A stretch of 21,498 bases of DNA from a virus, in the IMG/VR virus record IMGVR_UViG_3300031227_000506, positions 1 to 21,498 of that record; one strand, given 5' to 3'. Of the stretch, positions 4,783 through 21,498 are shown piece by piece. The translations under genes and the position numbers were made by a program. Under the pieces are notes generated by a model. That model saw only the letters and a list, made by a program, of their open reading frames with translations. It had not been told where the DNA came from and searched no databases. Numbering within the stretch: the stretch's first letter is position 1; each line of letters begins with the position of its first letter.

Positions 4783-4793
4783 AAACACTCCTG

Positions 4794-5237
4794 TTATACG
4801 TCAACAACATGGTAAACCACGTCAAATATGATTTCTATTTTATAAACAATCCTTAACGCTTTTCCATCGCCCTCGTCCCACGCACCATCTTTAACTGCCG
4901 GATATGTTGTGGTAAACAACCATGTAACGCTTTCACTTACGCTTTTAAACGGTGTTGCATCTTGTATCTTACTACCAACAGCCATTGCAGCATCACGCGT
5001 TGTGTACACGCCCTGTAAGGTTGCTTTTGTATGCCAACTACTTGACCCTGATGTATATGATTGATCCTGTATTTCACCGCCACCAATAGCAAACACAAAA
5101 GAATTGAGCTTGCCAGACAAAGATACATCAGAACCTATAAACGCATTCTGCCCAACTACACTCCCGGTCGTGGTTGCCAGTTGTGACAAACAATCATCCT
5201 CAGCGTCAGACCATACTGTATTAGCATTATCAGCCAT
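4794..5237 (-). CDS. Putative tail completion / terminator protein
   Basis: 147 residues; the start overlaps the gp10-like gene by eight bases and has AGGGG six bases upstream. It lies between the HK97 gp10-like protein and the tail tube protein, where siphoviruses encode the tail terminator (HK97 gp10/lambda U position). The sequence is beta-rich and Gly/Ser/Thr-rich, with a centre (GGGEIQDQSYTSGSSSWHTK) and a C-terminal strand run (RIVYKIEIIFDVVYHVVDV) that fit a small alpha/beta virion protein. The name rests on synteny. Confidence 0.5.
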   Translation of the reverse strand: MADNANTVWSDAEDDCLSQLATTTGSVVGQNAFIGSDVSLSGKLNSFVFAIGGGEIQDQSYTSGSSSWHTKATLQGVYTTRDAAMAVGSKIQDATPFKSVSESVTWLFTTTYPAVKDGAWDEGDGKALRIVYKIEIIFDVVYHVVDV

Positions 5238-5712
5238 TAAGTGCCCCTACTGCTTTTGTTATTTCGCTGTTATATATTGTTTTGATATTACCCTCATTAT
5301 CCTTAATTGCTCGTGTTAAGAACTTTTCCCGCGCCTGTGAACCTTTTGCTATTGTACCCGGGCCCCAATTCGTAATGCCGTCTTTTTCATGTACCTTTTT
5401 CGCATAACTTGCTGCCTCTGAATCTGACGGCACAAATAAATGCACAAATCCAACGGTTGCCTCTACCTTGATTGACCGTACCAGACCGCCGGGGTTGAAG
5501 TCTGTGCGTGTTGACTTGCCGCCCTTGAGTGTTCTTGCGTGCTGCCCTTTCTTCGGGCTTATAGGCGCATAGTCACGCGCTGAACGTCCAACAATCGGCT
5601 CAATACGCTTGTGAGCTTTGAGTGCCGTCTTATCCATCTTACTGCCAAGCTTGGAAAGCTTCGCTTCAATCTGCTCCATACCCTCTATTTTTACGCCAAC
5701 ATCAATAGCCAT
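5230..5712 (-). CDS. HK97 gp10-like head-tail completion protein
   Basis: 160 residues. The N-terminus (VGVKIEGMEQIEAKLSKLG...ALKAHKRIEPIVGRSARDYAPI) shows the hallmarks of the HK97 gp10 family: a strand, a 'G-x-E/L-L-x-L' helix, a long helix with paired Lys/Arg, then 'A-R-x-Y-A-P'. The usual 'TGxLRxSI' follows as GGLVRSIKVEAT (about 75-86), and 'YAKKVHE' (about 103-109) matches the 'YA..VE.GT' segment. Family members connect head and tail. The gene starts in a TAATG overlap with the minor head gene, so it is coupled to it. Confidence 0.8.
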   Translation of the reverse strand: MAIDVGVKIEGMEQIEAKLSKLGSKMDKTALKAHKRIEPIVGRSARDYAPISPKKGQHARTLKGGKSTRTDFNPGGLVRSIKVEATVGFVHLFVPSDSEAASYAKKVHEKDGITNWGPGTIAKGSQAREKFLTRAIKDNEGNIKTIYNSEITKAVGALNG

Positions 5713-6728
5713 TATATTGCCGCTTTCAACTTCTTATCAAGTTTCTTATCAACCTTCAATGCTTCCGGGGTACTACTAATCCCAACACGCGCCTTTTTAT
5801 CGCTCTGTATGCCTTTAGCATATTCGTTCCATGCTTCTTTATCGGGTACAGCAGGGTTTGGTGACTTTGCTTGCTCATCAATAAGCTTTTTGTCAACGTC
5901 AGCATCAACATATTCAGGTGTACATACACAATTTGGATGGAACACCCCGCCAGCCTCAGCATCAGCCATACTTGGGAACTTGCTGTTCGCCCCTGAAAGC
6001 GATACAACAACGCCACGCCATGCTGAACAGGCCGGGCACGGATCGCCTCCGCCCTCAATAGTTGCAAGATCATGGCCGTTGTCAACAAGCGCGTCTGTAT
6101 ACGCGTTCCGTGATACATTTGCAACGGTCGTTCTGTTTAACATATTGAAATAGTTTCCATTGTTCCATTTCTTGCCAGACTTATCAATAAACTGCCAACT
6201 ATTAAGTTTACCGCCCGCCATTTTCGTTACAGAATCACGCAACATCATTTGACGTTTGCGGGCTGTCCATCCGCTTATCTTTGCCATTCTAAACGTTTCA
6301 ACAACCGCAGAACGTAACTGCCGAATATCAGAAGCTAACATTTTCGTGGTCTGTGTTGCTGCAATACCCGGCGCATACTTCGGCACAAGTTCATTTACAT
6401 ACCCTTTGACGTGCTTCTTTTCGAGCTTAGAAACAACGTCGCCGCTCGCTTTCATATCATGTTTAGCTTTCTCAAAGAACTCTTTAGAAGCTGTCTTACC
6501 AACATCACCAGCCCACTTCTCAATGTCCGCCTGTAATAAATCGTATTCCGCTACCAGCTCCTTAAACATTGCATCACGTACAGCGCCACTTGACGCCAGT
6601 TTACTGTTATCAGCAAACCCAGCAAGTAACTTTTCAATGTTCTTTCTGCGATCAACTAACATATCAACCAGTTTTTTCTTACTGGCATTAATGCTTTTTC
6701 TCAGATGTGGTAACGGTTGATCTGCCAT
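5712..6728 (-). CDS. Minor head protein (MuF / phage minor capsid type)
   Basis: 338 residues with an AGAGG ribosome site. The N-terminal 150 residues are helical and charged. Residues about 197-275 form the MuF-type head morphogenesis domain: 'NRTTVANVSRNAYTDAL', then a Cys pair (CPAC, 231-234) followed by 'AWRG', and 'FHPNCVCTPEY' with H264, C267 and C269. The Cys/His set is typical of the minor capsid protein 2 / Mu gpF family and probably binds zinc. The family is incorporated in small copy number near the portal and can travel with the DNA. It normally lies next to the portal gene; here it sits after the capsid and adaptor genes, a modest rearrangement. I see no fused toxin or enzymatic domain. 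Confidence 0.8.
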   Translation of the reverse strand: MADQPLPHLRKSINASKKKLVDMLVDRRKNIEKLLAGFADNSKLASSGAVRDAMFKELVAEYDLLQADIEKWAGDVGKTASKEFFEKAKHDMKASGDVVSKLEKKHVKGYVNELVPKYAPGIAATQTTKMLASDIRQLRSAVVETFRMAKISGWTARKRQMMLRDSVTKMAGGKLNSWQFIDKSGKKWNNGNYFNMLNRTTVANVSRNAYTDALVDNGHDLATIEGGGDPCPACSAWRGVVVSLSGANSKFPSMADAEAGGVFHPNCVCTPEYVDADVDKKLIDEQAKSPNPAVPDKEAWNEYAKGIQSDKKARVGISSTPEALKVDKKLDKKLKAAI

Positions 6729-6729
6729 T

Positions 6730-7122
6730 CTATCCTCTTAATACCTCAACTCTATTCTGGTCGATACCCAACCAGTTCATAGATTCCGGTGCAATTAATC
6801 CCATACCTTCTTCTTTATCGGCGTCGCGATTGATTGCTAAAAACTTTGCACCTGTCTGATCTCCGTTTGGTATTGCATCAGAATTAACTAGCATATACAA
6901 CGCCTGTTCATAAACCGCATAATCAGGCTGATAATAGTCACCAGCGTCAATCGTTTCATCATCTTCAATATCAGTGTCAATATATCTGTTCAACACCCGC
7001 AACGCATTAGCAATAGCACCAGTGCGCTGTGCAGTTGAAAAACTGTCCCATACCGCATATTGAATGTGTGTTTCTTCACCAAAATATGTATTTGCTGTTG
7101 TAATGCTTATTGTCACTGCCAT
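6730..7122 (-). CDS. Head-tail adaptor (connector) protein
   Basis: 130 residues with ribosome site AAAGGAA. The layout fits the gp6/DnaT-like adaptor family found right after the capsid gene in many siphoviruses: N-terminal strand, 'TANTYFGEE', 'AVWDSFSTAQRTGAIANALRVLNRYID' (about 23-49, the helix pair seen as 'W..a....k..aL..At..LD') and a helix 'AVYEQALYMLV'. The family extends the portal ring and forms the tail docking interface. The gene ends one base before the minor head gene begins. The fold is inferred from pattern and synteny. Confidence 0.65.
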   Translation of the reverse strand: MAVTISITTANTYFGEETHIQYAVWDSFSTAQRTGAIANALRVLNRYIDTDIEDDETIDAGDYYQPDYAVYEQALYMLVNSDAIPNGDQTGAKFLAINRDADKEEGMGLIAPESMNWLGIDQNRVEVLRG

Positions 7123-7173
7123 TATTAAATTCCTTTATAGGAGTGCAGCCGCTAGGCCACACCCCATATTACT

Positions 7174-7512
7174 CTACTGCCTCTTTGCTTCTGCTGTAGC
7201 TGGAGCCGGAGTCGGAGCCGCAACGAGAACAGGTGTATGGTTAGCTTTCACGCCCATACGCCCGCCAAGTTTCTTACGGTTCAATTCAGCGATCTTAGCT
7301 GTAAGCTCTTTTTGTTCTTTCTCAGCTTTAAGTTCGATCACTTCCGCTTCCGCACGTGCTTTTTCTACTGCCTTTTCATTGGCGTTCATGTCAGCCTTCT
7401 TAAAGCCTTCAGCCTCAAAATAAGCCACATCAGCAGCACTACATTGACGAGTGCGAATAACTGGGTTACCCATTCCGTCAATTAATGTTTTCTGAATCTT
7501 AATACGTGCCAT
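7174..7512 (-). CDS. Small coiled-coil virion-region protein
   Basis: 112 residues, start preceded by AAAGGAG. Three parts are visible: a compact N-terminal module (about 1-40) with a C-x3-DV-x2-FE-x2-GF pattern; a Lys/Glu/Ala-rich coiled coil (about 43-83); and an Ala/Pro/Thr-rich, probably disordered tail (TPVLVAAPTPAPATAEA). It sits directly after the major capsid gene. Genes of this size there can encode capsid accessory or connector proteins, but I do not recognise the family. The N-terminal module resembles the 48-residue protein at 4636-4782. Confidence 0.6.
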   Translation of the reverse strand: MARIKIQKTLIDGMGNPVIRTRQCSAADVAYFEAEGFKKADMNANEKAVEKARAEAEVIELKAEKEQKELTAKIAELNRKKLGGRMGVKANHTPVLVAAPTPAPATAEAKRQ

Positions 7513-7554
7513 ACTATCTTTTACTCCTTTCTGTTACGCAGGTTATTACTGTTA

Positions 7555-8412
7555 TTATGCTAACAGCGTAGTATTAAGGTTAATGTCGATTAGCGTTGCC
7601 GCACGATATGTTTTGTGACCAGCCAGCAACCTGCCACGAATAAGATCACCAAACTGACCTTCTGCCGGGCCGAGGTTCTGGATGCTGTTCGGTGCAATCT
7701 GATTAGCTAAAGCAATCGAATTGCCTTTAACGCCACAAAGACCATGAGTAGTACCGCCGCCAGATGTGCAGTTGTTTGACGCGAATATCTCAAACCCGCC
7801 AAGGTTGCCCATGCTGCCGTTCTGCAATACTTCTGAACCAAAATCAGTTGAAACGCTCATTACGTAACGCTGAAATGCCTGTGTCAGAATAGATGGTGCT
7901 ACGATATAGCGTCCGTCCATAGGTGCATTAGCATCGTTCAACTGTTTATTCAGCGAATCAAGGAGTTTTGGTACATCAGCAGCAGTAGCACCAAGCTGCC
8001 ATGCCGTTGAACCAGTCTCATAAGAATCAAGGCCAGCATTTGCGTATTCACCTAGAATCAGTACATCAAGGTCGTCACGTAACTGATACGCACCATCCTG
8101 TGCAAAAATCTGTTCCCATGGCGCTGCGGCCTGAAGTTTATCTTCATCACGCACGATTAATGCAAACACTTTATCAACATCAATCGACAGCTCAGTGTCG
8201 GTAACTGTAGCGTCTTCGTATGTGATGTTTGTACCGGCAACGTAATCATCTGTTGATACTGCGCTTGCTGCAAGGATATGTAGCAAATCGCCTTTTTTAC
8301 TAACTTCGCCTGTCACTTCTGTATTACAGATTGCTTGTGCCACAAGACTTTTCTGCAATACTTGTGTGATTTTCTGTGCCCATATTTCGGGTATAAATAG
8401 ATCCATTGACAT
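7555..8412 (-). CDS. Major capsid protein (HK97 fold)
   Basis: 285 residues, start ATG 8412 with AAAGGA nine bases upstream; a second Met at codon 3 is less well placed. The N-terminus (LFIPEIWAQKITQVLQKSLV) and the strand block 'GDLLHILAAS', 'YVAGTNITYEDATVTDTELSIDVDKVFALIVRDEDKLQA' (about 41-95) are characteristic of P22-like/HK97-fold coat proteins, covering the E-loop and spine-helix regions. A later block 'YIVAPSILTQAFQ' (about 164-176) and the final 'TLIDINLNTTLLA' also fit. At 285 residues it is short, with no N-terminal scaffold domain, which agrees with a separate scaffold gene upstream. It forms the icosahedral shell. Confidence 0.85.
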   Translation of the reverse strand: MSMDLFIPEIWAQKITQVLQKSLVAQAICNTEVTGEVSKKGDLLHILAASAVSTDDYVAGTNITYEDATVTDTELSIDVDKVFALIVRDEDKLQAAAPWEQIFAQDGAYQLRDDLDVLILGEYANAGLDSYETGSTAWQLGATAADVPKLLDSLNKQLNDANAPMDGRYIVAPSILTQAFQRYVMSVSTDFGSEVLQNGSMGNLGGFEIFASNNCTSGGGTTHGLCGVKGNSIALANQIAPNSIQNLGPAEGQFGDLIRGRLLAGHKTYRAATLIDINLNTTLLA

Positions 8413-8468
8413 AATATTTGTCCTTTATGTTTATGTCTGTATATTCGTTTGTTATTAGTCGGTTACTG

Positions 8469-9728
8469 TTATGGTCCACTCATTGCAGGGGAACCAGCAC
8501 TTTCCATTATAAACCATCGGTTTGCACTTACTGCAACGATCTCAATCATATCCTCAGCCGTGTCCATAGTCGCAACTGAATTCGTCCCGTTCAACGTGTC
8601 GCTTGCGTAAGTAGTAACCACAACATCATTTCCGCCATCTGTAGCAAAGAAAATCATGAAATGTTTACCAATCATTGTGTTCGCGTCTGGTAAGGTAATC
8701 GCAATTGCGTTACTGGTCGTATCTGCAACAACAATATCATCTGCTACGGTTAATGTCATATCAGTATCACTCGCGTCAACTTCATATCTCATCGGGCCAT
8801 ATAATCCACCCGGTGCTGATACTGCGCCTGTAAGAGTTGAGATACCCGTTACCGCCAAAGTTCCAGTAGTCACAACATTACCAGTAGCGTTTGCCACGGT
8901 GAATGCTGTTGAATCAACTGTAATGCCAGCGTTTGCTGCAATGATACCAGCAGCGGTTATTGTGCTTGCCGCTGAAACTGCTCCTGTAAGGGTCGATGTA
9001 CCATCTGATGTGAATGTACCGCCAACAACAGTATTACCCGTTGCACCCGCTACGGTAAACTTATCAGTGTATATTGTGATATCTGATGTTGAACCACCAA
9101 TTAAATCTGCTCCAGCGCCAAGCGTAATACTAGCAGCTGAACCAACCGCACCTGTCAGAGTAGTTGCACCTGTCACTGCCAGCGTACCAGCAATAGCCGT
9201 GTTACCAGTTGCATCCGCAACCGTAAACTTATTCGTGTCACAAGCAATGCCACCATCTGCAGAAAGCGCACCACTTACATCAAGTGTACTTGCAATAGCT
9301 GTCGCGCCTGACGATCCTGTTACGGTGAATTTATCGGTATGGATTGCAATGTCGGTTGCAGAGCCTCCAACAAGGTTACCCGTAAGTGTCACAGCTCCAG
9401 TTAATGCCGATGTACCTGTTACTGCTAACGTTCCAGTTGTTGAAATGTTGCCGCTTGTATCTGCTACTGTAAACGCTGAACCATCAGCCGTGATGCCACC
9501 ATTAAGGGCAGATACACCAGTTACCGTTACCGATGAGGCTGAAACCGCCGTGTCACTGGTGGTTGTAGTTGATATTGCCGCCGTTGCGATAGTTGCTGTA
9601 CCAGTAACAACCAGATCAGCTACAGTCAGCGTGGTTGCTGTACTTTCTTCCGTTACAGGAGTGTAATCCGTACCTATTGCAAACCCTGTAAACAACAGAA
9701 TTGCAATAATCAAAAATAGTTTCTTCAT
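8469..9728 (-). CDS. Signal-peptide repeat protein, probable fiber
   Basis: 419 residues. Residues 1-19 (MKKLFLIIAILLFTGFAIG) form a Sec-type signal peptide with no lipobox Cys. Residues about 33-306 hold five imperfect repeats built on '(K/A)FTVA-ATGN...GTLAVTG-STLTGAV', with FTV at 86, 134, 168, 224 and 276. Low-complexity Gly/Ala/Thr/Val repeats of this kind occur in trimeric beta-structured phage fibers and in surface proteins. A distinct C-terminal domain (about 313-410) ends 'ANRWFIMESAGSP', like a fiber tip. It lies between scaffold and capsid genes, where a decoration or head-fiber gene would be, and its ribosome site overlaps the scaffold stop. An exported signal on a virion protein is odd; an alternative is a secreted or cell-surface phage product. 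Confidence 0.7.
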   Translation of the reverse strand: MKKLFLIIAILLFTGFAIGTDYTPVTEESTATTLTVADLVVTGTATIATAAISTTTTSDTAVSASSVTVTGVSALNGGITADGSAFTVADTSGNISTTGTLAVTGTSALTGAVTLTGNLVGGSATDIAIHTDKFTVTGSSGATAIASTLDVSGALSADGGIACDTNKFTVADATGNTAIAGTLAVTGATTLTGAVGSAASITLGAGADLIGGSTSDITIYTDKFTVAGATGNTVVGGTFTSDGTSTLTGAVSAASTITAAGIIAANAGITVDSTAFTVANATGNVVTTGTLAVTGISTLTGAVSAPGGLYGPMRYEVDASDTDMTLTVADDIVVADTTSNAIAITLPDANTMIGKHFMIFFATDGGNDVVVTTYASDTLNGTNSVATMDTAEDMIEIVAVSANRWFIMESAGSPAMSGP

Positions 9729-9740
9729 GTTTTTTTACCT

Positions 9741-10403
9741 TTATTCTGTTACTCTACCTTCGTTTTTAGCTGCATAAATGTCAGCCTCATTTTTTGTGAA
9801 CTCGTCTGTTGACATACTGCCAAGTTCAGTTCTCGTATAAACACGTTTACCAGTTGTATTAACACCACCCGGGGGAGTGCTACCCGATCCACCACCCGTA
9901 TCAGCAGCGATTAATGCCTGATTACCAGTAATAAACTCATCGATCTTGGTTTTTACGGTATCTTTATCAGTTAAATCAACATCAGTTAGAGTTGACGCCA
10001 GCGCGCTACGCACCAAATCAGGACTCACGCCGCTAATAACTTTAATACCGCTATAAATCTTGTCGATCTCATGTTGGCGCGACATGCTTTCATTCTGCGC
10101 CTTTGCTGCAACTGATTCGGCCTTAACCGTTTCAAGTTCCAGCATCAGTTTATCCGTCGCTTGTTTTGCTTTCTCGTCTGCTGTTAAATCTTTATTTCGC
10201 AACTCGTCCATCTGCTGTTTCATCGTTTCCAGTTGTGTTTGTAACTCAGCCGTTTTCTTTTCAGCATCTTTTCGAGCTGTTGCAGCACGTGAATTAGCAA
10301 CTGCATCAACATCCGGCGTTTCAAACTTCTCAGCAAACGCTTTCTCATCTGCCGTAAGTTCTTCACCTTTAATTACTTTTGCTAATACTTCTTCGATCTT
10401 CAT
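9741..10403 (-). CDS. Capsid scaffold protein
   Basis: 220 residues from ATG 10403. An ATG also lies at 10409, but GGAG is seven bases from 10403 and only one from 10409, so 10403 is preferred. The protein is highly charged, with a long coiled coil (about 40-115), a helical segment (about 118-160) and a Gly/Pro/Thr linker. It has a C-terminal helix motif 'YTRTELGSMSTDEFTKNEADI' (the 't..el..ms..ef.kn...i' pattern common at scaffold C-termini, where the coat protein is bound). It lies between portal and capsid genes. No protease motif is visible. The family directs shell assembly and then leaves the prohead. Confidence 0.8.
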   Translation of the reverse strand: MKIEEVLAKVIKGEELTADEKAFAEKFETPDVDAVANSRAATARKDAEKKTAELQTQLETMKQQMDELRNKDLTADEKAKQATDKLMLELETVKAESVAAKAQNESMSRQHEIDKIYSGIKVISGVSPDLVRSALASTLTDVDLTDKDTVKTKIDEFITGNQALIAADTGGGSGSTPPGGVNTTGKRVYTRTELGSMSTDEFTKNEADIYAAKNEGRVTE

Positions 10404-10424
10404 GTTCATACTCCATATTTTACC

Positions 10425-10446
10425 CCGTGGATATAAGCCGCCACGG
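10425..10446 (-). other. Hairpin just upstream of the scaffold gene
   Basis: A six-base perfect inverted repeat, CCGTGG/CCACGG with a ten-base loop, lies about 10 bases upstream of the scaffold ribosome site. It could influence translation of the scaffold gene, which needs to be highly expressed, or act as a pause or processing site. No T-run follows, so it is not a terminator by itself. Confidence 0.4.
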
Positions 10447-10461
10447 TATCAGCTACCTCGT

Positions 10462-10488
10462 GAATAAAACGCCGTCACGATAGCGGCG
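10462..10488 (-). terminator. Weak intrinsic terminator-like hairpin after portal gene
   Basis: Reading on the minus strand, CGCCG, a nine-base loop, CGGCG, then TTTTATT. The five GC pairs (10470-10474 with 10484-10488) followed by a T-rich stretch resemble a short rho-independent terminator. It lies 16 bases after the portal stop and before the scaffold gene. In this position it probably attenuates rather than stops the late transcript, lowering portal-linked message relative to downstream genes or the reverse; this is inference. Confidence 0.4.
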
Positions 10489-10504
10489 ATATTTTAACTA
10501 TCTA

Positions 10505-12031
10505 CTAATAGTTAATTGCTTGTAATCCATCATCTTTCATAATTGCGTTTGTTACCGCTTCAATCTGTTCTGGTGTTAAATCACCACCACCAATCTTACG
10601 CACAGTGTCAAACATTTTCTTTAACACGATCTGCCGCATTTCGTTCGGCATGCCTGACGTATTTGATACCAATACTAACGCCTGCACATCTTCCATAAGA
10701 TTATCAACATTGAATTTCTTAGGATACGATGGTGTATATTCCGGGAACGTCTCATCAAACTCACGGCTGATCTTTATAATTTCAATCTCAGTTTCTTCAA
10801 GTTCATTCGCTCGTTTCTTTAATACAGCCTCAATATCCAGCCTATCGATCTTCTTTGCATCTGCAGACTCAGCAGAAGCAGAGCCTTTCTGCAGCATAAA
10901 CCCTACAGTATCAAATAAATCCCGCTTATGTGTATCGATCTCACTCCGCATTGACCCGAATATATTAGCGTCTGGTGTAATGTATCCCGGTGGCGTGTCG
11001 CCTTGGCCTATAAGGATAGGATACCCCATCCCAATCACCATGCCAGTAACGGCACTTACATCTTTCTTTAACGCACCTGCCATAGCTTTAACAGCAGACA
11101 TTGGCAGGTACATTTGCGGGTAACAAGTCCTGAAATAGTTTTCGCGTAATGCGCTTTCTAAATCCATAATTGTGCGGTTAATCGACTCGATTGAATCCCA
11201 TATGATAGGTTTTGCGCTCGGAACTCCCAGCAACCGGAACGGAACACGATTGCAATGCAACGTGTATTCAATATGTCCGTCAATGCGGGTTTTGTCATTT
11301 TCTTTGCCGTAGAATCGCGTTGCCATTCCATGCTGCCAGAGTGTTCTATAGTATTTTGTTATGCGTTGTGTTGCCGGGTCATTCCCTTCTGAAACGTTGC
11401 CTTGTGTAAGAACCCATTCAAGGTCGCCTTTACTGTCAAACTGCCAGTCAACCACTTCCAGCGGTGAATAGCCAACCCAATATGGTCGTATCTTCTGATT
11501 CTTTTTCGTCAATATTGATACCTTGCCGGGGTCAGCAACTTCCGGCATGTCAACGCCAATCCACGCCCATCCGCATACTTCTCGATCCGAATTGGCATCT
11601 TGCATAAACGTATTAATCGGCAACCCGTCACGGGTAATGTTATTTGCAATATCAGAATCTAACCCGTCACGCACTGGCGATTCGCCAAACACGTATTGAT
11701 TTAACTTTGCAACGATCCGCTGCATATGCGGTTTACAATGCGCTGTGTGTTTACGGCCTGTAACATGTGCGCCCTCACGAGTACCCCCATTAAACGCTGT
11801 ATCCGTCTCAGCAGCGAACCTCGAAAGTCTCGCGTCAATATACGGCTGCCCACCATCAAGGCCAAGCAGATTAATGCTTAACTGCGCTTTTCGAGCTGTG
11901 TATATCGAATGTTCCCGAACCATGATATAATCAGATTTACTATTTATTCCGCTTGACGCTGATGCAGGTCTGTTGCCAGTAGTCTTATCAAATCTGTTTT
12001 CTGTACTGTTCTGTCCGGTATAATCTGCCAT
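10505..12031 (-). CDS. Portal protein
   Basis: 508 residues, start preceded by AAAGGA that overlaps the large terminase stop codon. The order terminase-portal-scaffold-capsid is canonical. Visible portal-like features are an N-terminal acidic/polar segment, 'RIVAKLNQYVFGESPV' (about 103-118), 'WAWIGVDMP' and 'RPYWVGYSPLEVVDWQFD' (wing region), and 'NRTIMDLESALRENYFRTCYPQMYL' (about 285-309). A Gly-rich loop and a long helix 'ANELEETEIEIIKISREFDE' follow near 400. The length is normal for SPP1 gp6-like portals. Twelve copies form the DNA gate at one capsid vertex and dock the terminase. Confidence 0.85.
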   Translation of the reverse strand: MADYTGQNSTENRFDKTTGNRPASASSGINSKSDYIMVREHSIYTARKAQLSINLLGLDGGQPYIDARLSRFAAETDTAFNGGTREGAHVTGRKHTAHCKPHMQRIVAKLNQYVFGESPVRDGLDSDIANNITRDGLPINTFMQDANSDREVCGWAWIGVDMPEVADPGKVSILTKKNQKIRPYWVGYSPLEVVDWQFDSKGDLEWVLTQGNVSEGNDPATQRITKYYRTLWQHGMATRFYGKENDKTRIDGHIEYTLHCNRVPFRLLGVPSAKPIIWDSIESINRTIMDLESALRENYFRTCYPQMYLPMSAVKAMAGALKKDVSAVTGMVIGMGYPILIGQGDTPPGYITPDANIFGSMRSEIDTHKRDLFDTVGFMLQKGSASAESADAKKIDRLDIEAVLKKRANELEETEIEIIKISREFDETFPEYTPSYPKKFNVDNLMEDVQALVLVSNTSGMPNEMRQIVLKKMFDTVRKIGGGDLTPEQIEAVTNAIMKDDGLQAINY

Positions 12032-12045
12032 ATCTTAAAAATCCT

Positions 12046-13293
12046 TTATGCCACTGCAATAAACATTGACTGATAATTGTGTTTAAGTTTCCATGCTGCC
12101 AACGCCAACGATATTACACAATCGTCATGATACCCGTCTGGCGCGTTATATCTAACGTTCCCCGCTCTTGTCATTTCGTACTGGTATAATTCAAGTTCGT
12201 TTATCATAACCGCTATATCCGGGTACTCTATTTCTTTCTTTTCAATACACACAACTAAATGTTCAATCAACTGTTGTTTCGTCGTGTTCGTAAAACTGTA
12301 CCCGTCAACATCAACATCAGCCGCCTTTACTTGCTCAAGTACCGGATCACCCACGCCCGTTGAATCCATTAATACTGACGCGCCATTATACCTATTTGCT
12401 AAATCTTTTAATCTACCAACCTGTACCGAATAATCTATCTGATTAAACCGTTCAAACGCCACTATCTGAGCAGTACCAACGTCAATTACAACAAACACAC
12501 TAAAATCTGTATGCTTGGCAATATCCCAACCAATAACATACTGCCTGCCGGGTACTGGTTCCTGCAACTCACCTTTAATGCACTGACGAATACCCCGGAA
12601 CACGCCCGCACCATCTTCCAGAAAATCTGCTTCATATTCCTGCTGAAACACGTCACTTGGTAGCGTCTGTCTGGCAAACTCAACTTCACTGTCCGGTATA
12701 TAAGGGTTGCTTATTGTCGGGAACTTGAATGACTCGTATTCTGGATACAACGGATCATTACCCCGTAAATGTTCGTGATAAAACCAGTTACGACCGAATG
12801 GTGTTCCGATAATTAACGCGCGTCCATTAGTATCTGATAGCGTTGGTCGTAACGCTTCTTGCCATGCCGCTTTACGTACTTTTGCAGCCTCGTCAATTAC
12901 AAGAAACTTAACACCATCACCACGTAAATTATCAAACTTCTCAGCTGATAGAAACTGTGTCATTGACCCGTTTTTCCATGTAACCGTAAGATCAGAAAGA
13001 CGTGGAGGGCTTTTGAATGCTGTATTAAAATTGCTTGTCATTGTCCTGTATGGAATTAACGCTTGTCGATATACTGGCGCAACCCACCACGTCATACATC
13101 CGGGAAACTCCCATGCCGCTTTCGCAATCTCATTCACGCCAGCAAGTGTCTTTCCCCACCGCCGCCCACAGGTAGCGAACCTGAACCGTGCTGAACTGTT
13201 ATGTAAAAGAACCTGTTTATCATGCGGAGTATATAACTTAATCCGCTGTTTCTTCGTCTGTTTTTGTTGTCCCGAACTCTGCGATATACTCAT
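12046..13293 (-). CDS. terL: Terminase large subunit
   Basis: 415 residues from ATG 13293; the frame opens further to a TTG at 13323 but this lacks a ribosome site. ATPase motifs: Walker A 'CGRRWGKT' (42-49), Walker B 'FLVIDEA' (130-136, E135 catalytic) and the coupling motif 'IIGTPFG' (161-167). Nuclease motifs of the RNase H-like domain: 'GWDIAKHTD' (D257), 'VLMDSTGVGD' (D310) and 'YHDDC' (D390/D391). All key acidic residues are present, so the protein should translocate and cut DNA into the prohead through the portal. Length is normal. The start lies 56 bases inside the small subunit gene, so the two are translationally coupled. Confidence 0.93.
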   Translation of the reverse strand: MSISQSSGQQKQTKKQRIKLYTPHDKQVLLHNSSARFRFATCGRRWGKTLAGVNEIAKAAWEFPGCMTWWVAPVYRQALIPYRTMTSNFNTAFKSPPRLSDLTVTWKNGSMTQFLSAEKFDNLRGDGVKFLVIDEAAKVRKAAWQEALRPTLSDTNGRALIIGTPFGRNWFYHEHLRGNDPLYPEYESFKFPTISNPYIPDSEVEFARQTLPSDVFQQEYEADFLEDGAGVFRGIRQCIKGELQEPVPGRQYVIGWDIAKHTDFSVFVVIDVGTAQIVAFERFNQIDYSVQVGRLKDLANRYNGASVLMDSTGVGDPVLEQVKAADVDVDGYSFTNTTKQQLIEHLVVCIEKKEIEYPDIAVMINELELYQYEMTRAGNVRYNAPDGYHDDCVISLALAAWKLKHNYQSMFIAVA

Positions 13294-13666
13294 TATTTTC
13301 AATGCGTTCCGTTGCCTCTCCAATAAGCAACAAACCCAGTTTTACTACTTTTTCAACATCCTGCACGGTTACTGGTACCAACCTACCAGCTTTTATCTCC
13401 TCGATCGCTTTACTGATTAACACACTAACAATCTTGCGATAATCAGCTTTTGTTTCTGCAACGGTCTTGATGTTCTTCTTTTCGATTCTCTTTGCTATAG
13501 CTAAATCTCTCAGATGTACTCGTTTACGCCAATCAAATGCTTTTGCCCAATTGAAAATGGAACTTTTCCCAACACCATATTTTGTAGCAGTTGCTTCATA
13601 GCTACGGTCATTCCCATTGCTGTAATAATATTCAAAGGCTTCTATATGTCTGAGTGTTTCTTTCAT
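13238..13666 (-). CDS. terS: Terminase small subunit
   Basis: 142 residues, start in a TAATG overlap with the upstream fragment and with AAGGG upstream. The N-terminus (about 18-50, SYEATATKYGVGKSSIFNWAKAFDWRKR) is a helix-turn-helix of the type found in Gram-positive and Gram-negative phage small terminases ('ATKYGVGKSSI-NWAKAFDW-R'). The centre is a long helical oligomerisation segment and the C-terminus an acidic tail that would contact the large subunit. The gene immediately precedes and overlaps the large subunit gene. Its role is packaging-site recognition. Confidence 0.85.
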   Translation of the reverse strand: MKETLRHIEAFEYYYSNGNDRSYEATATKYGVGKSSIFNWAKAFDWRKRVHLRDLAIAKRIEKKNIKTVAETKADYRKIVSVLISKAIEEIKAGRLVPVTVQDVEKVVKLGLLLIGEATERIENNEYIAEFGTTKTDEETAD

Positions 13667-13968
13667 TATATGCCCTTAATTGGCACACGTACCCTGCCAT
13701 TCGTTGATTTATCAATATCGAACCGGAATATTTTAGCACCCCACCGTTTAACCATTACTTCAGCCTGTTCAATCTCGTGCTTTTTCATTCTATACGCACC
13801 ACAACCCCCTTTTTTATCTAAGTGATCAGCAGTGTAATAATACTTATTGAACCGCAATACTTTTCTGTGTTTCATTACGGTTTTTAAATAAAAGTCATAA
13901 TCTTCGTTCAGGTAAAGGGTTTCATCATATCTCAGTGTTATTCTGATATTTAAATACTTGCATACCAC
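13666..13968 (-). CDS. C-terminal fragment of a TAGT-like glycosyltransferase, probably truncated
   Basis: The open frame gives up to 100 residues, with GTG 13968 as the most upstream start and no ribosome site before it. The content, 'NEDYDFYLKTVMKHRKVLRFNKYYYTADH', then 'KKGGCGAYR' and 'RVRVPI', resembles the C-terminal part of the phage TET-associated glycosyltransferase (TAGT) family: an 'ED-D' acidic motif, 'VLRFN', 'K-GG---R', and a terminal basic strand. Full-length members are two to three times longer, and the nucleotide-sugar-binding N-terminal half is missing. A terminator hairpin and promoter sit right at the break. The stop overlaps the small terminase start (TAATG), so translation of some product is possible. 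I read it as a remnant; the family call is from memory of the pattern. Confidence 0.5.
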   Translation of the reverse strand: MVCKYLNIRITLRYDETLYLNEDYDFYLKTVMKHRKVLRFNKYYYTADHLDKKGGCGAYRMKKHEIEQAEVMVKRWGAKIFRFDIDKSTNGRVRVPIKGI

Positions 13969-13987
13969 AATTAAGACGAAATGTCAA
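13959..13987 (-). promoter_or_regulatory. Sigma70-like promoter for the late operon
   Basis: On the minus strand, TTGACA (13987-13982), a 17-base spacer, then TATGCA (13964-13959). The -35 is perfect; the -10 matches TATAAT at the first three positions. It lies directly behind a strong terminator and ahead of the terminase genes, a logical place for a late promoter. Transcription would begin near 13951, inside the glycosyltransferase-like fragment, so that frame's GTG would not be on this transcript. Confidence 0.5.
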
Positions 13988-13989
13988 GA

Positions 13990-14047
13990 TAAAAAGAAAC
14001 GGCGGCTGCTCCATCAACGCATACAAAAGGGATGAGCCAACCGCCGT
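13990..14047 (-). terminator. Strong rho-independent terminator
   Basis: Bases 13999-14008 pair with 14038-14047 over ten positions (ACGGCGG...CCGCCGT). The one non-Watson-Crick position is C-A on the plus strand, which is a G-U pair in minus-strand RNA. Further pairs (CATC with GATG) extend the stem inward to a loop of about 15 bases. On the minus strand the stem is followed by TTTCTTTTTA. It closes the operon of small genes and separates it from the packaging and structural genes. Confidence 0.85.
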
Positions 14048-14089
14048 CAATCTGGTTTTTCCTACTATTAACACTTATTACGTCATACG

Positions 14090-14308
14090 CTATCCTTTCT
14101 GTGGTGGTTTCGTTTTAGTTTGAATAATACCACGCAATACAACCACCATCGTAATGCTGGTAAAATCGTTATTAGTACATCGTCTGATAACTCTATAATT
14201 TAGACTTTGAGGCTGCATATTATCATTACTGAGCTGTTTGTTCATATCATCAAACGCATATTCAAGCTCTTGTTTATCAACGCCAAAAACAGGTTTTTTA
14301 TCCATCAT
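14090..14308 (-). CDS. Small protein of unknown function
   Basis: 72 residues (or 71 from the second ATG at 14305). A strong AAGGAGG lies just upstream, and the gene overlaps the previous stop codon (ATGA). The N-terminal half is polar with a helix 'QELEYAFDDMNKQLSND'; the C-terminal half looks like beta strands 'NYRVIRRC' and 'SITMVVVLRGII' followed by a basic tail. It is the last gene before the terminator. No family recognised; the helix-then-strand layout is common among small early phage proteins. Confidence 0.6.
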   Translation of the reverse strand: MMDKKPVFGVDKQELEYAFDDMNKQLSNDNMQPQSLNYRVIRRCTNNDFTSITMVVVLRGIIQTKTKPPQKG

Positions 14309-14511
14309 TCATCCTCCTTCTGCTCCTTCTTTGGCTTCTGAATATATCTACCCATAACAGCAGTTCTCGTATTATATTCGATTACGCCATAAATCGTTAA
14401 TGAACCAGGAATGAACACTGGTATTCTAAACTCAACATCGTCAGGTATAACCACATCACCATCACAGTTCATGTATTGTTCTAAATCACGTAGATGCTTA
14501 ATCAGTATCAT
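14305..14511 (-). CDS. Small protein of unknown function
   Basis: 68 residues from ATG 14511, seven bases after GAGG; a GTG one codon earlier is less well spaced. The product has an N-terminal helix 'HLRDLEQYMNCDGDVVIPDDVEF' and a beta-rich centre 'PVFIPGSLTIYGVIEYNTRT', then a Lys/Glu tail. It is coupled to the next gene by an ATGA overlap. I recognise no family. Confidence 0.65.
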   Translation of the reverse strand: MILIKHLRDLEQYMNCDGDVVIPDDVEFRIPVFIPGSLTIYGVIEYNTRTAVMGRYIQKPKKEQKEDE

Positions 14512-14520
14512 CACATCACC

Positions 14521-14682
14521 TCACTTTCCGTTTTTGAACTTGTGCTTGTCGCAGGTATTGGTTGGCAAGACATACTCGCCTACTATTTTACAGTCCAAAC
14601 CGCCGCCTTTTCTCCATTTACAATTAAAACACATGCGACCAGCTCGATACCCGTTCGCCTTTAATGTTTGTTTAGCTGTCAT
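14521..14682 (-). CDS. Small Cys-rich protein, probable zinc binder
   Basis: 53 residues, starting in a TGATG overlap with the preceding gene, with GGAG six bases upstream. The product contains 'MCFNCKWRKGGGLDCK' and later 'TCDKH': C18, C21, C31 and C44/H47 make a compact CxxC-Cx(n)-CxxH cluster. Such small zinc proteins of early phage operons often bind nucleic acid or a host protein, but nothing more specific can be said. Both ends fit neatly between neighbours, which supports it as a real gene. Confidence 0.75.
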   Translation of the reverse strand: MTAKQTLKANGYRAGRMCFNCKWRKGGGLDCKIVGEYVLPTNTCDKHKFKNGK

Positions 14683-14816
14683 CACCTACTCCTCTCTACC
14701 TGTTTAGTTTCTGCTGCCATATCCTCATGACTATATGGATTGGTACACATATAATGCACCAGCACCGCCACTGCTATTGACATGCTTAGGTACATGATTA
14801 TGCAAAAGGCTTTCAT
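14682..14816 (-). CDS. Small single-pass membrane protein
   Basis: 44 residues, GAGG seven bases before the ATG. Residues 2-24 (KAFCIIMYLSMSIAVAVLV and on) are a hydrophobic membrane segment; the remainder (SHEDMAAETKQVERSR) is a short charged tail, probably cytoplasmic or periplasmic depending on insertion. The start overlaps the previous stop as ATGA and the end overlaps the next start as TGATG. The role is unknown; inner-membrane peptides of this size in phages can alter host membrane proteins or block superinfection, which is only a possibility here. Confidence 0.65.
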   Translation of the reverse strand: MKAFCIIMYLSMSIAVAVLVHYMCTNPYSHEDMAAETKQVERSR

Positions 14817-14977
14817 GGCGTATCCTCGCCATCATCACTCGCCGCCTCTTGTTCTTCTGGTTCATCATATACTGACCCCGTGGCATCATATACTGTGCAA
14901 TAATTTTCTAGATGGTGCTTTAATCCCCTCAAATCAAAATCTTCTTCACCACAGAAAGGACAGATTATATTAGTCAT
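14813..14977 (-). CDS. Small C2HC zinc-finger protein
   Basis: 54 residues with a perfect AAGGAGG six bases upstream. The first half forms a single zinc finger: C6-x2-C9 within 'CPFCGEEDFDLRGLKHHL', then H21/H22 and C27. The C-terminal half is strongly acidic (EPEEQEAASDDGEDTP). The finger-plus-acidic-tail plan suggests binding to DNA or to a basic protein. It overlaps the previous gene by eight bases and the next by four (ATGA). No family name is assigned. Confidence 0.75.
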   Translation of the reverse strand: MTNIICPFCGEEDFDLRGLKHHLENYCTVYDATGSVYDEPEEQEAASDDGEDTP

Positions 14978-15257
14978 CGCTCACCTCCTTGTTGAGTAGT
15001 TGCTCTAAAACTCCAGCGGCAGGATAGTCGCTGGCATTCTCTAAGCTCTCTATTGCATTAGTTATAGCAGCCTCCAGCTCAGCTATGCGATCATCTTTAC
15101 TAGCAACCTCAGCCTGTAGCTGCTCTGTTTCTTTACCAATAGCATTCTCAAGTGCATGAGATATAGCTAGTGATACTTGTTTCATATGGTAGTGTTCACC
15201 CTTAAATCTGGCTAAAATAATACGTTCAACTTCTTTTCTCAATTCAAGACTTATCAT
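14970..15257 (-). CDS. Coiled-coil protein of unknown function
   Basis: 95 residues from ATG 15257. The frame is open to 15290, but 15257 forms a TGATG overlap with the preceding stop and has AGGAGGAG just upstream. Residues 1-35 (MISLELRKEVERIILARFKG and on) and 40-75 are helical; 'ETEQLQAEVASKDDRIAELEAAI' is a classic coiled coil. The C-terminal 20 residues may form a separate helix ('AAGVLEQLLNKE'). Probably oligomeric; no function recognised. Confidence 0.7.
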   Translation of the reverse strand: MISLELRKEVERIILARFKGEHYHMKQVSLAISHALENAIGKETEQLQAEVASKDDRIAELEAAITNAIESLENASDYPAAGVLEQLLNKEVSDD

Positions 15258-15586
15258 CACCCTGCTCCTCCTGCTTTGCATATTGTACATGGTTCGCTGA
15301 TGTGATACACTGTACCGTCAGTATTATCCTCAATAATCCAGCTATCGCCTGTCGCTGTCGGAACTCGTAACACAGTGCCTTTGCTTATCAGGGTGTACCT
15401 TATACAGTTAAAATCCACATGGACAGTGTCGCCCTCTATTATTCTGTTATCATTCATCGGTTTCTCAGCCTTCTTCACCTCAGCCTGTAGCTGCATCACC
15501 GCATCATACAATACACGCTTACATCCAGTATTCTGCACTTCGCCCAACTGGTCAAACATACCGTCAATATCTTGTTTAGTTATCAT
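15257..15586 (-). CDS. Unknown protein with SH3-like C-terminal half
   Basis: 109 residues from ATG 15586 (GAGG nine bases upstream); an earlier in-frame codon at 15601 lacks support. The N-terminal 40 residues are helical ('DIDGMFDQLGEV...VLYDAVMQLQAEVKKAEK'). The remainder, 'IIEGDTVHVDF...LISKGTVLRV...GDSWIIEDNTDGTVYHISE', has the strand-turn-strand pattern of a small SH3/KOW-like barrel. The helical part shares 'LQAEVKKAEKP' wording with neighbouring gene products (LQAEVASK; VKLAEKP), hinting at a shared ancestry of these small genes. No function assigned. Confidence 0.65.
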   Translation of the reverse strand: MITKQDIDGMFDQLGEVQNTGCKRVLYDAVMQLQAEVKKAEKPMNDNRIIEGDTVHVDFNCIRYTLISKGTVLRVPTATGDSWIIEDNTDGTVYHISEPCTICKAGGAG

Positions 15587-16157
15587 TATCCTCAGCCTCA
15601 TTTATACTGTTCCACTTATCACACCACATTTGCCCTGTGCCTGCTGGTACTGTTGCTTCCCCCACACAACCACATCGTAATATATCAAACACCTTATCGC
15701 CCGATGCCACAACCCACTTCGGTTTCTCAGCCAGCTTCACCTCACGCTCGTGTGCTGCGTTCATACGTTCACAATACCCCAATGCGGTTTCATATGTCGG
15801 GAAACACGATTGCTTTATCATTTCAAGCTCTGTGTCTATAGCATCATAGTTGGGTGATTCACCATAATGGTAACGCTTGGCAGGCACATACCGCTTAACC
15901 GGATTGTCCTTGCGCCAGGCTGCGTTCTTCTCATTACAATACTCAACAGCTAAACTATGGTTTCTGCCTTTGTATGTTGCGACAACCTGACTGCTTCTGT
16001 TGTCAACTACTAGACATCCATACTCAATATCAGAGTCGTTGTATATAGCATATGGCTCACGTTCGGCATCCCAAGCGTCCGCTATCTTCTCCAATACAGG
16101 CAGCCAGTACATGTTGCCATCTACCAGTCCTTTCAGCTTTTCTAGTGTATCATTCAT
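15576..16157 (-). CDS. Unknown protein with duplicated Cys-Asn motif
   Basis: 193 residues, AGGAGG seven bases before the ATG, ATGA overlap with the preceding gene. Two similar segments are visible: 'SLAVEYCNEKNAAWRK' (about 68-83) and 'ETALGYCERMNAAHER' (about 122-137). They share A-x2-YC-x3-NAA, a short helix motif seen in many small phage proteins. Between them lies a basic, aromatic stretch (KRYVPAKRYHYGES). The C-terminus has 'RCGCVG' and 'QMWCDKW', perhaps a metal site. It looks like a repeat-built adaptor, not an enzyme. No family recognised. Confidence 0.65.
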   Translation of the reverse strand: MNDTLEKLKGLVDGNMYWLPVLEKIADAWDAEREPYAIYNDSDIEYGCLVVDNRSSQVVATYKGRNHSLAVEYCNEKNAAWRKDNPVKRYVPAKRYHYGESPNYDAIDTELEMIKQSCFPTYETALGYCERMNAAHEREVKLAEKPKWVVASGDKVFDILRCGCVGEATVPAGTGQMWCDKWNSINEAEDNDN

Positions 16158-19735: not shown

Positions 19736-19764
19736 ATATTACATCAAGGTTATTATGATGTCAA
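19736..19764 (-). promoter_or_regulatory. Sigma70-like early promoter
   Basis: On the minus strand TTGACA (19764-19759), a 17-base spacer, then TAATAT (19741-19736). It lies in the 95-base gap between the replication partner gene and the YopX-like gene, so it would drive YopX, the ATPase and the genes beyond. Expected start is near 19729, leaving a leader of about 45 bases that ends in the AAAAGAAAAGGC box. Confidence 0.65.
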
Positions 19765-19778
19765 TACTATTAAATCGC

Positions 19779-20411
19779 TTAAAACGGTACATCAAGTACC
19801 TGTTCATCAGTATCACTTTTAACCGTAACAGCTATCTCTCGTATTTTCCCATACTCACCAAACCTCGGATTTCGTTTAATTCTGATCATATCAATTCCAG
19901 TGACTTTCTTTATTACACGGTTACCCTCAGTGACTTCTTCCATCCGGGCAACGATTGTATGTTTATTCTTTGCATCAATCAACCTGCCGCCTGAGATTTT
20001 GAGTTTATTATCACTTATCAGCTTACCCATCACATCAAACAGGTCTGCATGACTGGCTTTATATTTATCTGCTGCCTTGCAATTACAGCGGAAACTCTGG
20101 CTACCACCGCGCCCCTCAAAAACACAGCGAATACTTAATATTCCAGACCCATCACAACGCACACAATTAACGCGCTCAATCCCCATATTATACTTTGGCA
20201 TTGCTCCATAAAGCCGCCCGAAGTCCACTATTTTCGGCATATGTATGAGCTGATGTTTCGCATTTCTGCATAATTTAGCCCACATATGAGATGGTAAATG
20301 CTTGTACACATCGAAATAATCATCAAGTATACACTGTTCATCCATCATTTTCGGTCTACTGAAATACACACACAACGTTTCAAACTCTATTGCAAACTCT
20401 CTAAACAGCAT
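19779..20411 (-). CDS. Zinc-finger replication partner (possible helicase loader)
   Basis: 210 residues, GGAG seven bases before ATG 20411, start inside the initiator gene (11-base overlap), so the two are coupled. Residues about 30-70 ('DDYFDVYKHLPSHMWAKLCRNAKHQLIHMPKIVDFGRLYG') resemble the N-terminal helical module of phage replication proteins downstream of the initiator, such as helicase loaders. A Cys cluster (C83, C86, C109, C111) within 'CVRCDGSG...FRCNC' is a DnaJ-like zinc ribbon. The C-terminal half is beta-rich and basic. Lambda has O then P in the same order; a loader role is inferred from this. It could instead be a structural zinc protein of the replisome. Confidence 0.55.
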   Translation of the reverse strand: MLFREFAIEFETLCVYFSRPKMMDEQCILDDYFDVYKHLPSHMWAKLCRNAKHQLIHMPKIVDFGRLYGAMPKYNMGIERVNCVRCDGSGILSIRCVFEGRGGSQSFRCNCKAADKYKASHADLFDVMGKLISDNKLKISGGRLIDAKNKHTIVARMEEVTEGNRVIKKVTGIDMIRIKRNPRFGEYGKIREIAVTVKSDTDEQVLDVPF

Positions 20412-21234
20412 CGTATTTCTCCGTTAAATTTTTTATGACTTGTTTTCTTTTTGCCTCATCTGCACTAACTGATTTTGCACTCCCACCTCTTTCTTGCCCT
20501 TTTGACATCCAGTTTGTTAGGAACCGGAAATAATTCTTCTTACGCTTCTTCGGGTTTGCTATAAGCCACAACCCAGCCCGATCAATAGAATTGTCAACAT
20601 CAACTGCTGGGAATGCGGTGTACCATTTTTGCAGTATTTTTTCTGATATTCCAGTAAACGATCCTGTGTCAAAATCAAATTTCACCTGCTCTGTAACCGG
20701 AACTTTGTCCGGTTCGGAGCTACTCTTAGTATTTTCTTTATTCTTTATTTCTTTATTCTTATCATTCTTGTTATATATATTGTGCCCATCAGAATCCGTT
20801 CGTTGCCCGTTCGTTGCCCGTTCGTAGTCCCGTTCGTTGTGCCCTTCGTAGTTTTTCGGGGTCTGGTAAAACACGTAGTTTGAGATACTTACCTTAAACC
20901 CGTGAGTTACCTTCGTTGTGCCCACCATAGACCCGTTCGTTGCCCGTTCGTAGTCCCGTTCGTGCGTCCTTCGTAACCAGTCAAAAACTGCACGTACTTG
21001 TTTACAGCTTGGCTTCTCAACCCTATACCCAACGCGCCACGATACAGCGTCACAAACCTTTGCAATAGTAGTCACTAACTCACCACGGTTCAGGTTCTTA
21101 TATTCTTCATGTTGAACAGTCAATAGCAACCACACCCACACTTTCAGGTATAACGGAGGTTTTGCCATGATTTCGCTTTCAATGAGTTTTCTACTGAGCA
21201 AGATATAACCGCCGGGGATTAATGGTTTATACAC
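20401..21234 (-). CDS. Phage replication initiator / replisome organizer
   Basis: 277 residues. Start is GTG 21234, with GAGGGG about eight bases upstream. The N-terminal domain (about 8-124: 'GGYILLSRKLIESEIMAKPP', 'WLLLTVQHEEYKNLNRGELVTT', 'CKQVRAVFDWLRR', 'HGFKVSISNYVFYQ') is the winged-helix domain of phage replisome organizers and O-like initiators. A polar Lys/Asn linker (about 145-180) follows. The C-terminal domain (about 193-277) has 'LQKWYTAFP', 'NPKKRKKNYFRFLTNWM', a segment typical of O/DnaD-like initiators that contact the helicase loader. Residues 92-101 and 134-143 are the same decapeptide, ERDYERATNG, encoded by the iteron arrays. The protein probably binds these repeats in its own gene. 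Confidence 0.8.
   Translation of the reverse strand: MYKPLIPGGYILLSRKLIESEIMAKPPLYLKVWVWLLLTVQHEEYKNLNRGELVTTIAKVCDAVSWRVGYRVEKPSCKQVRAVFDWLRRTHERDYERATNGSMVGTTKVTHGFKVSISNYVFYQTPKNYEGHNERDYERATNGQRTDSDGHNIYNKNDKNKEIKNKENTKSSSEPDKVPVTEQVKFDFDTGSFTGISEKILQKWYTAFPAVDVDNSIDRAGLWLIANPKKRKKNYFRFLTNWMSKGQERGGSAKSVSADEAKRKQVIKNLTEKYDAV
20806..20837. repeat. 32-base direct repeat, copy 1 (iterons)
   Basis: Identical at all 32 positions to 20932-20963, 126 bases away (exactly 42 codons). It holds three CCGTTCGT octamers and encodes the decapeptide ERDYERATNG. Part of the lower iteron cluster (20796-20849). Confidence 0.9.
20932..20963. repeat. 32-base direct repeat, copy 2 (iterons)
   Basis: Identical to 20806-20837. 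It encodes the same decapeptide in the region that would be the wing of the winged-helix domain, where relatives are usually shorter. Part of the upper iteron cluster (20933-20974). Confidence 0.9.
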
Positions 21235-21252
21235 AAATCAACCCCCTCACCG

Positions 21253-21332
21253 CACAAAAAAGCCCCCAACCAGCTAGTACAGAAAGTATAGGGACAGAAT
21301 CCCTGATAGGTTTCATACTGGATAGGGGCTTT
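21253..21332 (-). terminator. Terminator with nested stems ahead of the initiator gene
   Basis: On the minus strand, AAAGCCCC (21332-21325) pairs with GGGGCTTT (21266-21259), followed by more Ts and a G. Nested inside are AGTAT/ATACT (21315-21319 with 21285-21289) and AGGGA/TCCCT (21290-21294 with 21300-21304, loop CAGAA). It ends about six bases before the initiator ribosome site, so it can act as an attenuator for that gene as well as the end of the upstream operon. Confidence 0.65.
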
Positions 21333-21361
21333 GACATTTTATATTGTTCCTTTCTGTACTA
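21275..21361. repeat. 12-base inverted repeat bounding an 87-base structured segment
   Basis: TAGTACAGAAAG at 21275-21286 and its exact reverse complement at 21350-21361. One arm lies outside and the other inside the terminator stem, so the two pairings are interleaved: they form either a pseudoknot or two alternative folds. The segment also has three (T/G)ATAGG copies (21287, 21305, 21321). Confidence 0.7.
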
Positions 21362-21369
21362 TTTAAATG

Positions 21370-21398
21370 AACTTACAACATCTTTACAGCCTTGTCAA
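21370..21398 (-). promoter_or_regulatory. Candidate promoter for the replication genes
   Basis: On the minus strand TTGACA (21398-21393), a 17-base spacer, then TAAGTT (21375-21370). The -35 is perfect but the -10 is poor (first, second and last bases match). A transcript from here would run through the structured leader into the initiator gene. Confidence 0.35.
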
Positions 21399-21406
21399 CA
21401 GTTATT

Positions 21407-21498
21407 TCAGCCCAACACGATCTCTTTTTTCCACTGCAACTCAACCCGCGCATCTTTCGCCTCAACCGCTTTGAAGTTCTTTTCTTTCTGTTCCCAGA
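21407..21498 (-). CDS. C-terminal end of an upstream gene (cut by window edge)
   Basis: The last 30 codons of a minus-strand frame, reading WEQKEKNFKAVEAKDAR, then VELQWKKEIVLG and a stop. Of the three frames this one has protein-like composition (amphipathic, Lys/Glu-rich); one other is closed early and the third is very basic and Cys/Ser/Arg-rich. It ends just before the candidate promoter and the structured leader. Too little is present to name it. Confidence 0.5.
   Translation of the reverse strand, partial: WEQKEKNFKAVEAKDARVELQWKKEIVLG

What the first reader, a model, noticed from the sequence alone, without database searches (positions are those of the whole stretch)
21259..21361. Interleaved stems form a possible pseudoknot or switch before the initiator gene
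Going along the minus-strand RNA, the order is arm A (21361-21350), arm B (21332-21325), inner stems, arm A' (21286-21275), arm B' (21266-21259). A/A' is 12 perfect pairs and B/B' is an 8-pair terminator with a T-run, so the two stems cross. If A/A' forms first, it could hinder or help the terminator. That would make this a control point for initiator synthesis, analogous in purpose to copy-number control leaders.
Basis: partly seen in the sequence, partly recalled or inferred. Interest (0 to 1): 0.7.

Follow-up and report, generated by a model that had tools for sequence, protein, structure and literature searches.

The report
Folded RNA leader before replication initiator
Just in front of a phage's gene for starting DNA replication, the RNA can fold in two competing ways that would hide or expose the ribosome landing site of a tiny leader reading frame, so it may tune how much initiator is made, but no related sequence was found to prove it.

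Summary
The repeats are real and at the stated coordinates. A/A' (21361-21350 / 21286-21275) is a perfect 12-bp inverted repeat. B/B' is longer than reported: 15 nt, 14 of 15 paired with one G-U (21332-21318 / 21273-21259), with a 6-T run. No window shuffle out of 200 holds a crossing 12+8 pair. (1) A 36-codon ORF with a good Shine-Dalgarno starts at 21337, and its stop overlaps the initiator's GTG. (2) A TTGACA-17-TAAGTT promoter would start RNA right at arm A. (3) The whole B..B' stretch folds as one 74-nt rod (-30.5 kcal/mol, lowest of about 1790 stretches sampled on this strand). (4) The rod uses part of A', so the folds compete as well as cross. (5) The initiator's own SD lies in a third hairpin. 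Best reading: a 5' leader switch controlling initiator output by translation-coupled attenuation, working like plasmid rep leaders but not a member. The ORF's codon use is not that of a gene, and the terminator is atypical (44-nt loop). None of 42 initiator homologues or about 85 terminase relatives was found to carry the leader, so covariation cannot be tested. Partly supported, unproven.

The parts
21370..21398 (-). predicted promoter: TTGACA (21398-21393), 17 nt, TAAGTT (21375-21370); expected start near 21363
   Evidence: sequence, exact TTGACA with A2/T6 second hexamer; second hexamer only 3 of 6, so below the scan threshold
21350..21361 (-). arm A, within about 2 nt of the predicted 5' end of the RNA; overlaps the SD of the small ORF
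21348..21353 (-). Shine-Dalgarno AAAGGA of the small ORF
   Evidence: -10.3 kcal/mol to anti-SD, 1st percentile of background, 6th best of 32 starts
21227..21337 (-). 36-codon ORF MSKPLSSMKPIRDSVPILSVLAGWGLFCAVRGLICV*, stop overlaps initiator start; possible leader ORF
   Evidence: codon score unlike the window's genes
21318..21332 (-). arm B (15 nt; reader gave 21325-21332)
21290..21304 (-). inner hairpin AGGGAUUCUGUCCCU
21275..21286 (-). arm A'; its UUUC also pairs with GAAA inside the B rod
21259..21273 (-). arm B' (15 nt; reader gave 21259-21266)
21256..21261 (-). T-run at the end of the rod
21259..21332 (-). 74-nt imperfect hairpin (rod) containing B, inner hairpin, A', B'
   Evidence: -30.5 kcal/mol, z -4.4, 0 of 500; lowest energy of about 1790 sampled 74-nt stretches; 10th by z
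21214..21246 (-). hairpin over the initiator SD (arms 21246-21237 and 21223-21214), loop holds the GTG start and the small ORF's stop
   Evidence: z -2.0, p 0.044; opening cost 9.4 kcal/mol, 4th highest of 32 starts
20401..21234 (-). initiator gene, DnaD-like helicase loader (PHROG 2514), start GTG 21234

Best explanation
The stretch is the 5' leader of the initiator mRNA and acts as a folding switch. Inferred steps: RNA starts near 21363 at arm A. When A' has been made, A pairs with A' and covers the SD of the small leader ORF. When B' appears, B pairs with B' and the rod with its U-run forms, either breaking A/A' or crossing it; with no ribosome on the small ORF this favours pausing or termination just before the initiator SD. 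If a ribosome loads on the small ORF early, it covers B, prevents the rod, lets transcription continue, and on reaching the stop codon at 21229-21227 opens the hairpin that hides the initiator SD, so initiator translation is coupled to leader translation. Shown: the pairings, their order in equilibrium folding of growing RNA, the ORF and SD positions, the overlap of stop and start. Not shown: transcription start, termination, translation of the ORF, any regulation.
For: Crossing repeats beyond chance. Equilibrium folding of growing RNA: A/A' 97% formed when A' emerges, near 0 once B' is out and the rod dominates. The rod has the lowest energy of the 74-nt stretches sampled on the strand. With an initiating ribosome over 21355-21322 the rod cannot form (-15.2 versus -31.1 kcal/mol). 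The small ORF has one of the better SDs in the window. The initiator SD is strong (-13.0) but costly to open (9.4 kcal/mol). Initiator start supported by homology. Promoter match placing +1 at arm A.
Against: No relative carrying the leader was found, so no covariation. The codon score of the ORF is -7.0 against 7.0 +/- 3.6 for gene pieces of the window, so it may not be translated. An ORF ending this close to the initiator start has a chance of about 0.05. The terminator loop is 44 nt and the scan does not call it. The 131-nt leader as a whole is not unusually stable (z -1.4). The second promoter hexamer is poor (3 of 6).
Confidence: 0.4

Rival explanations
1. A simple structural hairpin: the rod is a partial terminator or RNase-resistant 5' structure limiting read-through from the upstream gene; A/A' is incidental or merely a 5' protecting stem, and there is no switch.
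For: The rod is the strongest signal (z -4.4; lowest energy in the scan); A..A' alone is weaker (z -2.7, p 0.012).
Against: A/A' is the only perfect 12-bp repeat of this range in the window and lies at the predicted 5' end and over an SD.
Confidence: 0.25
2. DNA-level control: A and A' are two inverted copies of a protein-binding site (operator), 75 bp apart, at the start of the transcription unit, and the RNA pairing is a by-product.
For: A is directly at the predicted transcription start; near-copies of AGTACAGAAAG with up to 2 mismatches are in excess in the window (18 against 7.2 expected).
Against: Most near-copies lie inside genes and not at promoters (positions), so the excess may be codon bias; the arm is not itself a palindrome; B/B' would be unexplained.
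Confidence: 0.12
3. The region is an ordinary short membrane-peptide gene and its foldings are coincidental.
For: Good SD, 36 codons, hydrophobic C-terminal half, stop overlapping the next start as in phage operons.
Against: Codon score far outside the range of the window's genes (0 of 560 gene pieces as low); crossing repeats in 0 of 200 shuffles; no PHROG match.
Confidence: 0.13
4. A nascent-RNA element acting on RNA polymerase itself (like HK022 put), transcribed at the start of the early operon.
For: Large structured RNA immediately at the predicted 5' end of a phage replication operon.
Against: No Rfam match even at a relaxed threshold; the U-run and the two ribosome sites are not needed for such an element.
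Confidence: 0.04

Closest known systems
ColIb-P9 repY-repZ leader (IncI/IncB/IncL-M plasmids); titles in the reference list of PMC10724649, details from own knowledge
   Same: short leader ORF whose end overlaps the initiator start; initiator SD in a hairpin that leader translation would open; long-range crossing pairing proposed as a switch
   Different: phage DnaD-like initiator; no antisense RNA promoter found by consensus scan; pairing partners differ: here the long-range stem covers the leader ORF's own SD and a U-run follows the rod
pT181 / pIP501 rep transcription attenuator (PMC5703833)
   Same: terminator-like hairpin immediately upstream of the initiator start, and an upstream segment that pairs with part of it (A with A', pre-emptor-like)
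   Different: no counter-transcript found; A pairs with an inner part of the rod, not with its 5' arm; the leader is an open frame with an SD
Ribosome-dependent leader-peptide attenuators (trp/his type; own knowledge)
   Same: SD-led short ORF through the hairpin; ribosome position would decide the fold
   Different: no run of codons for one amino acid; the signal sensed is unknown
HK022 put RNA (PMC9378689)
   Same: structured RNA at the start of an early phage transcript
   Different: no covariance-model match in Rfam; has a U-run and ribosome sites

Membership tests
ColIb-P9 repY-repZ type leader | leader ORF ending at the initiator start | tested here: met
   ATG 21337 to TAA 21227, overlapping GTG 21234; translation not shown
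ColIb-P9 repY-repZ type leader | initiator SD sequestered in a hairpin | tested here: met
   predicted hairpin 21246-21214, opening 9.4 kcal/mol; prediction only, weak significance
ColIb-P9 repY-repZ type leader | pseudoknot between a loop and the sequence next to the initiator SD | tested here: inconclusive
   crossing pairs exist but involve other segments
ColIb-P9 repY-repZ type leader | antisense RNA against the leader | tested here: not met
   no + strand promoter match opposite the leader; a consensus scan only
ColIb-P9 repY-repZ type leader | downstream initiator of the plasmid RepZ/RepA kind | tested here: not met
   PHROG 2514 DnaD-like helicase loader, no Pfam match
pT181/pIP501 attenuator | terminator-like hairpin directly before the initiator start | tested here: met
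   rod 21332-21259 plus T-run ending at 21256, start codon at 21234
pT181/pIP501 attenuator | counter-transcript drives the choice of fold | tested here: not met
   no + strand promoter match opposite the leader; a consensus scan only
intrinsic terminator | G+C-rich stem followed by a U-run | tested here: met
intrinsic terminator | short loop (about 3-10 nt) | tested here: not met
   44 nt between the arms, only partly closed by inner pairs; not called by the scan
compact H-type pseudoknot | loop 3 long enough to span stem 1 | tested here: not met
   1 nt (21274) between A' and B' against a 12-bp stem; only an open form using the 31-nt loop is possible
conserved structured RNA | covariation in relatives | not testable with these tools
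   no relative with the leader was found

The most novel reading that the evidence does not exclude
A phage replication initiator controlled by a self-contained RNA switch, in which crossing stems hide the start of a leader ORF and form a terminator-like rod, with no antisense RNA: a phage counterpart of plasmid copy-number leaders.
Probability: 0.25. Interest if true: 0.65.

Novelty: new variant of a known kind. Interest (0 to 1): 0.4.

Why it matters
RNA control of initiator synthesis is classical in plasmids. A leader with the same logic in a tailed phage, without an antisense RNA, would suggest that phages too can set early replication by leader translation, and it would be easy to test with reporters.

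Tried and rejected
Rfam at gathering and relaxed thresholds: nothing credible (suhB at 15.7 bits against a cut-off of 41 is chance). Exact 17-mer of the A'-B' junction in viral contigs: 4 matches without the rest of the leader, about the number expected by chance. A...A' with a 48-78 nt gap: no match. Peptide motif AGWGLFCA of the small ORF: 5 chance matches. Small ORF as a protein query: too short for the tool. Initiator homologues (42 loci): most initiators there closely follow another gene and no interleaved repeats were found. Terminase relatives: apart from L007, which is the same virus (99.985% over 13.7 kb) but stops short of the leader, none was found to share the initiator or the leader; many of these contigs are short fragments that do not reach that far. 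Leader DNA against phages and plasmids: no match to the element. A tiny transposable element with 12-bp ends: no other copy found, and B' would lie outside it.

Full report
What was checked. The window is a 21.5-kb virus record from IMG/VR, a tailed phage whose recognisable genes lie on the minus strand. The finding lies 137 nt from the contig end, directly before a gene whose protein matches PHROG 2514, DnaD-like helicase loader, and is 47% identical over its N-terminal half to the initiator of Staphylococcus phage StB20-like. Alignment supports its start at GTG 21234.

B/B' is longer than stated: 15 nt with one mismatch and one G-U. A/A' is the only perfect 12-bp inverted repeat with a gap of at most 100 nt in the window; 9% of whole-window shuffles and 0.05% of local shuffles have one. 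A crossing 12+8 pair was found in none of 200 shuffles. These thresholds were chosen after the fact, so the figures overstate the surprise somewhat.

On the minus strand a perfect TTGACA with a 17-nt spacer and TAAGTT predicts an RNA start near 21363, so arm A would be the very 5' end. The sequence AAAGGA at the end of A is a Shine-Dalgarno for an ATG at 21337 (sixth strongest of 32 starts), opening a 36-codon frame that runs through B, A' and B' and stops at 21227, overlapping the initiator's GTG. Its codon use is unlike that of the window's genes, so if it is translated it is more likely a leader than a protein gene. The initiator's own SD (GAGGGGG, strong) lies in a predicted hairpin whose loop holds both the initiator start and the small ORF's stop; opening this start costs 9.4 kcal/mol, fourth highest of 32. 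That hairpin is only weakly significant (p 0.044).

Switch or pseudoknot. Folding RNAs of growing length from 21363, A/A' is 97% formed once A' is out (-20.6 kcal/mol), and is replaced when B' appears (-29.9 and lower). The whole B..B' stretch is a 74-nt rod (-30.5 kcal/mol, z -4.4, 0 of 500 shuffles), the lowest energy of about 1790 stretches sampled on that strand, although nine other sampled stretches have a similar or lower z. The rod pairs the UUUC of A' with a GAAA, so the two folds share bases. The outer B/B' could still form with A/A' kept, as a crossing structure; simple sums (duplexes -15.0 and -22.4, inner hairpin -6.1, less an assumed penalty of 9-14 kcal/mol) give about -30 to -34, no different from the nested fold (-31.1), so the energies do not decide. 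The folding program used cannot represent pseudoknots. The 1-nt link between A' and B' excludes a compact H-type pseudoknot. I favour a sequential switch.

Mechanism. An initiating ribosome on the small ORF would cover B and forbid the rod, letting transcription continue, and its arrival at the stop would open the initiator's SD. Without it, the rod and its six T form just before the initiator SD. This is inference; only the pairings and positions are shown.

Relatives. Homologous initiators in 42 other loci lack any such leader as far as inverted repeats in the 160 nt upstream show; most follow another gene closely. Eighty loci of terminase relatives do not share the initiator region as far as they reach. 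One contig (L007) is the same virus but ends before the leader. So neither covariation nor independent confirmation of the sequence is available; this is the main weakness.

Comparison. The layout works like plasmid rep leaders: repY-repZ of ColIb-P9 (leader ORF, coupled initiator, pseudoknot; named through the reference list of PMC10724649, and own knowledge; the original papers could not be read) and the pT181 attenuator (PMC5703833). It is not filed as a member of either: no antisense promoter was found by consensus scan, and the initiator is of another family.

Verdict.

Noticed in passing
20797-20842 and 20934-20956: Six CGTTCGTNGNCC copies at 11-12 nt spacing in two clusters inside the initiator gene (0.86 expected), iteron-like, a candidate replication origin. 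Most of 29 initiator homologues examined (L016-L053) carry repeats of their own, with different sequence, at a similar place in the gene, often in two clusters separated by about 67 nt (no shuffle control was run for the homologues).
   Followed up: partly
21409-21498: The 3' end of a further minus-strand reading frame (EQKEKNFKAVEAKDARVELQWKKEIVLG*) is cut by the contig end, so the upstream context of the leader is incomplete.
   Followed up: no
L007 (window 2049-15722): A second IMG/VR contig (3300035698_001497) is 99.985% identical to the window over 13,674 bases: the same virus in another assembly or sample.
   Followed up: yes
19736-19764: A second TTGACA-17-TAATAT promoter match on the minus strand before the gene at 19683.
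   Followed up: no
12046-13323: Terminase closest among phage records to Tunturiibacter phage Tunturi_4 (40%) and Thermus phages of the P23-45 group (33%), while the initiator is closest to loci mostly from Bacillota: a mosaic genome.
   Followed up: no
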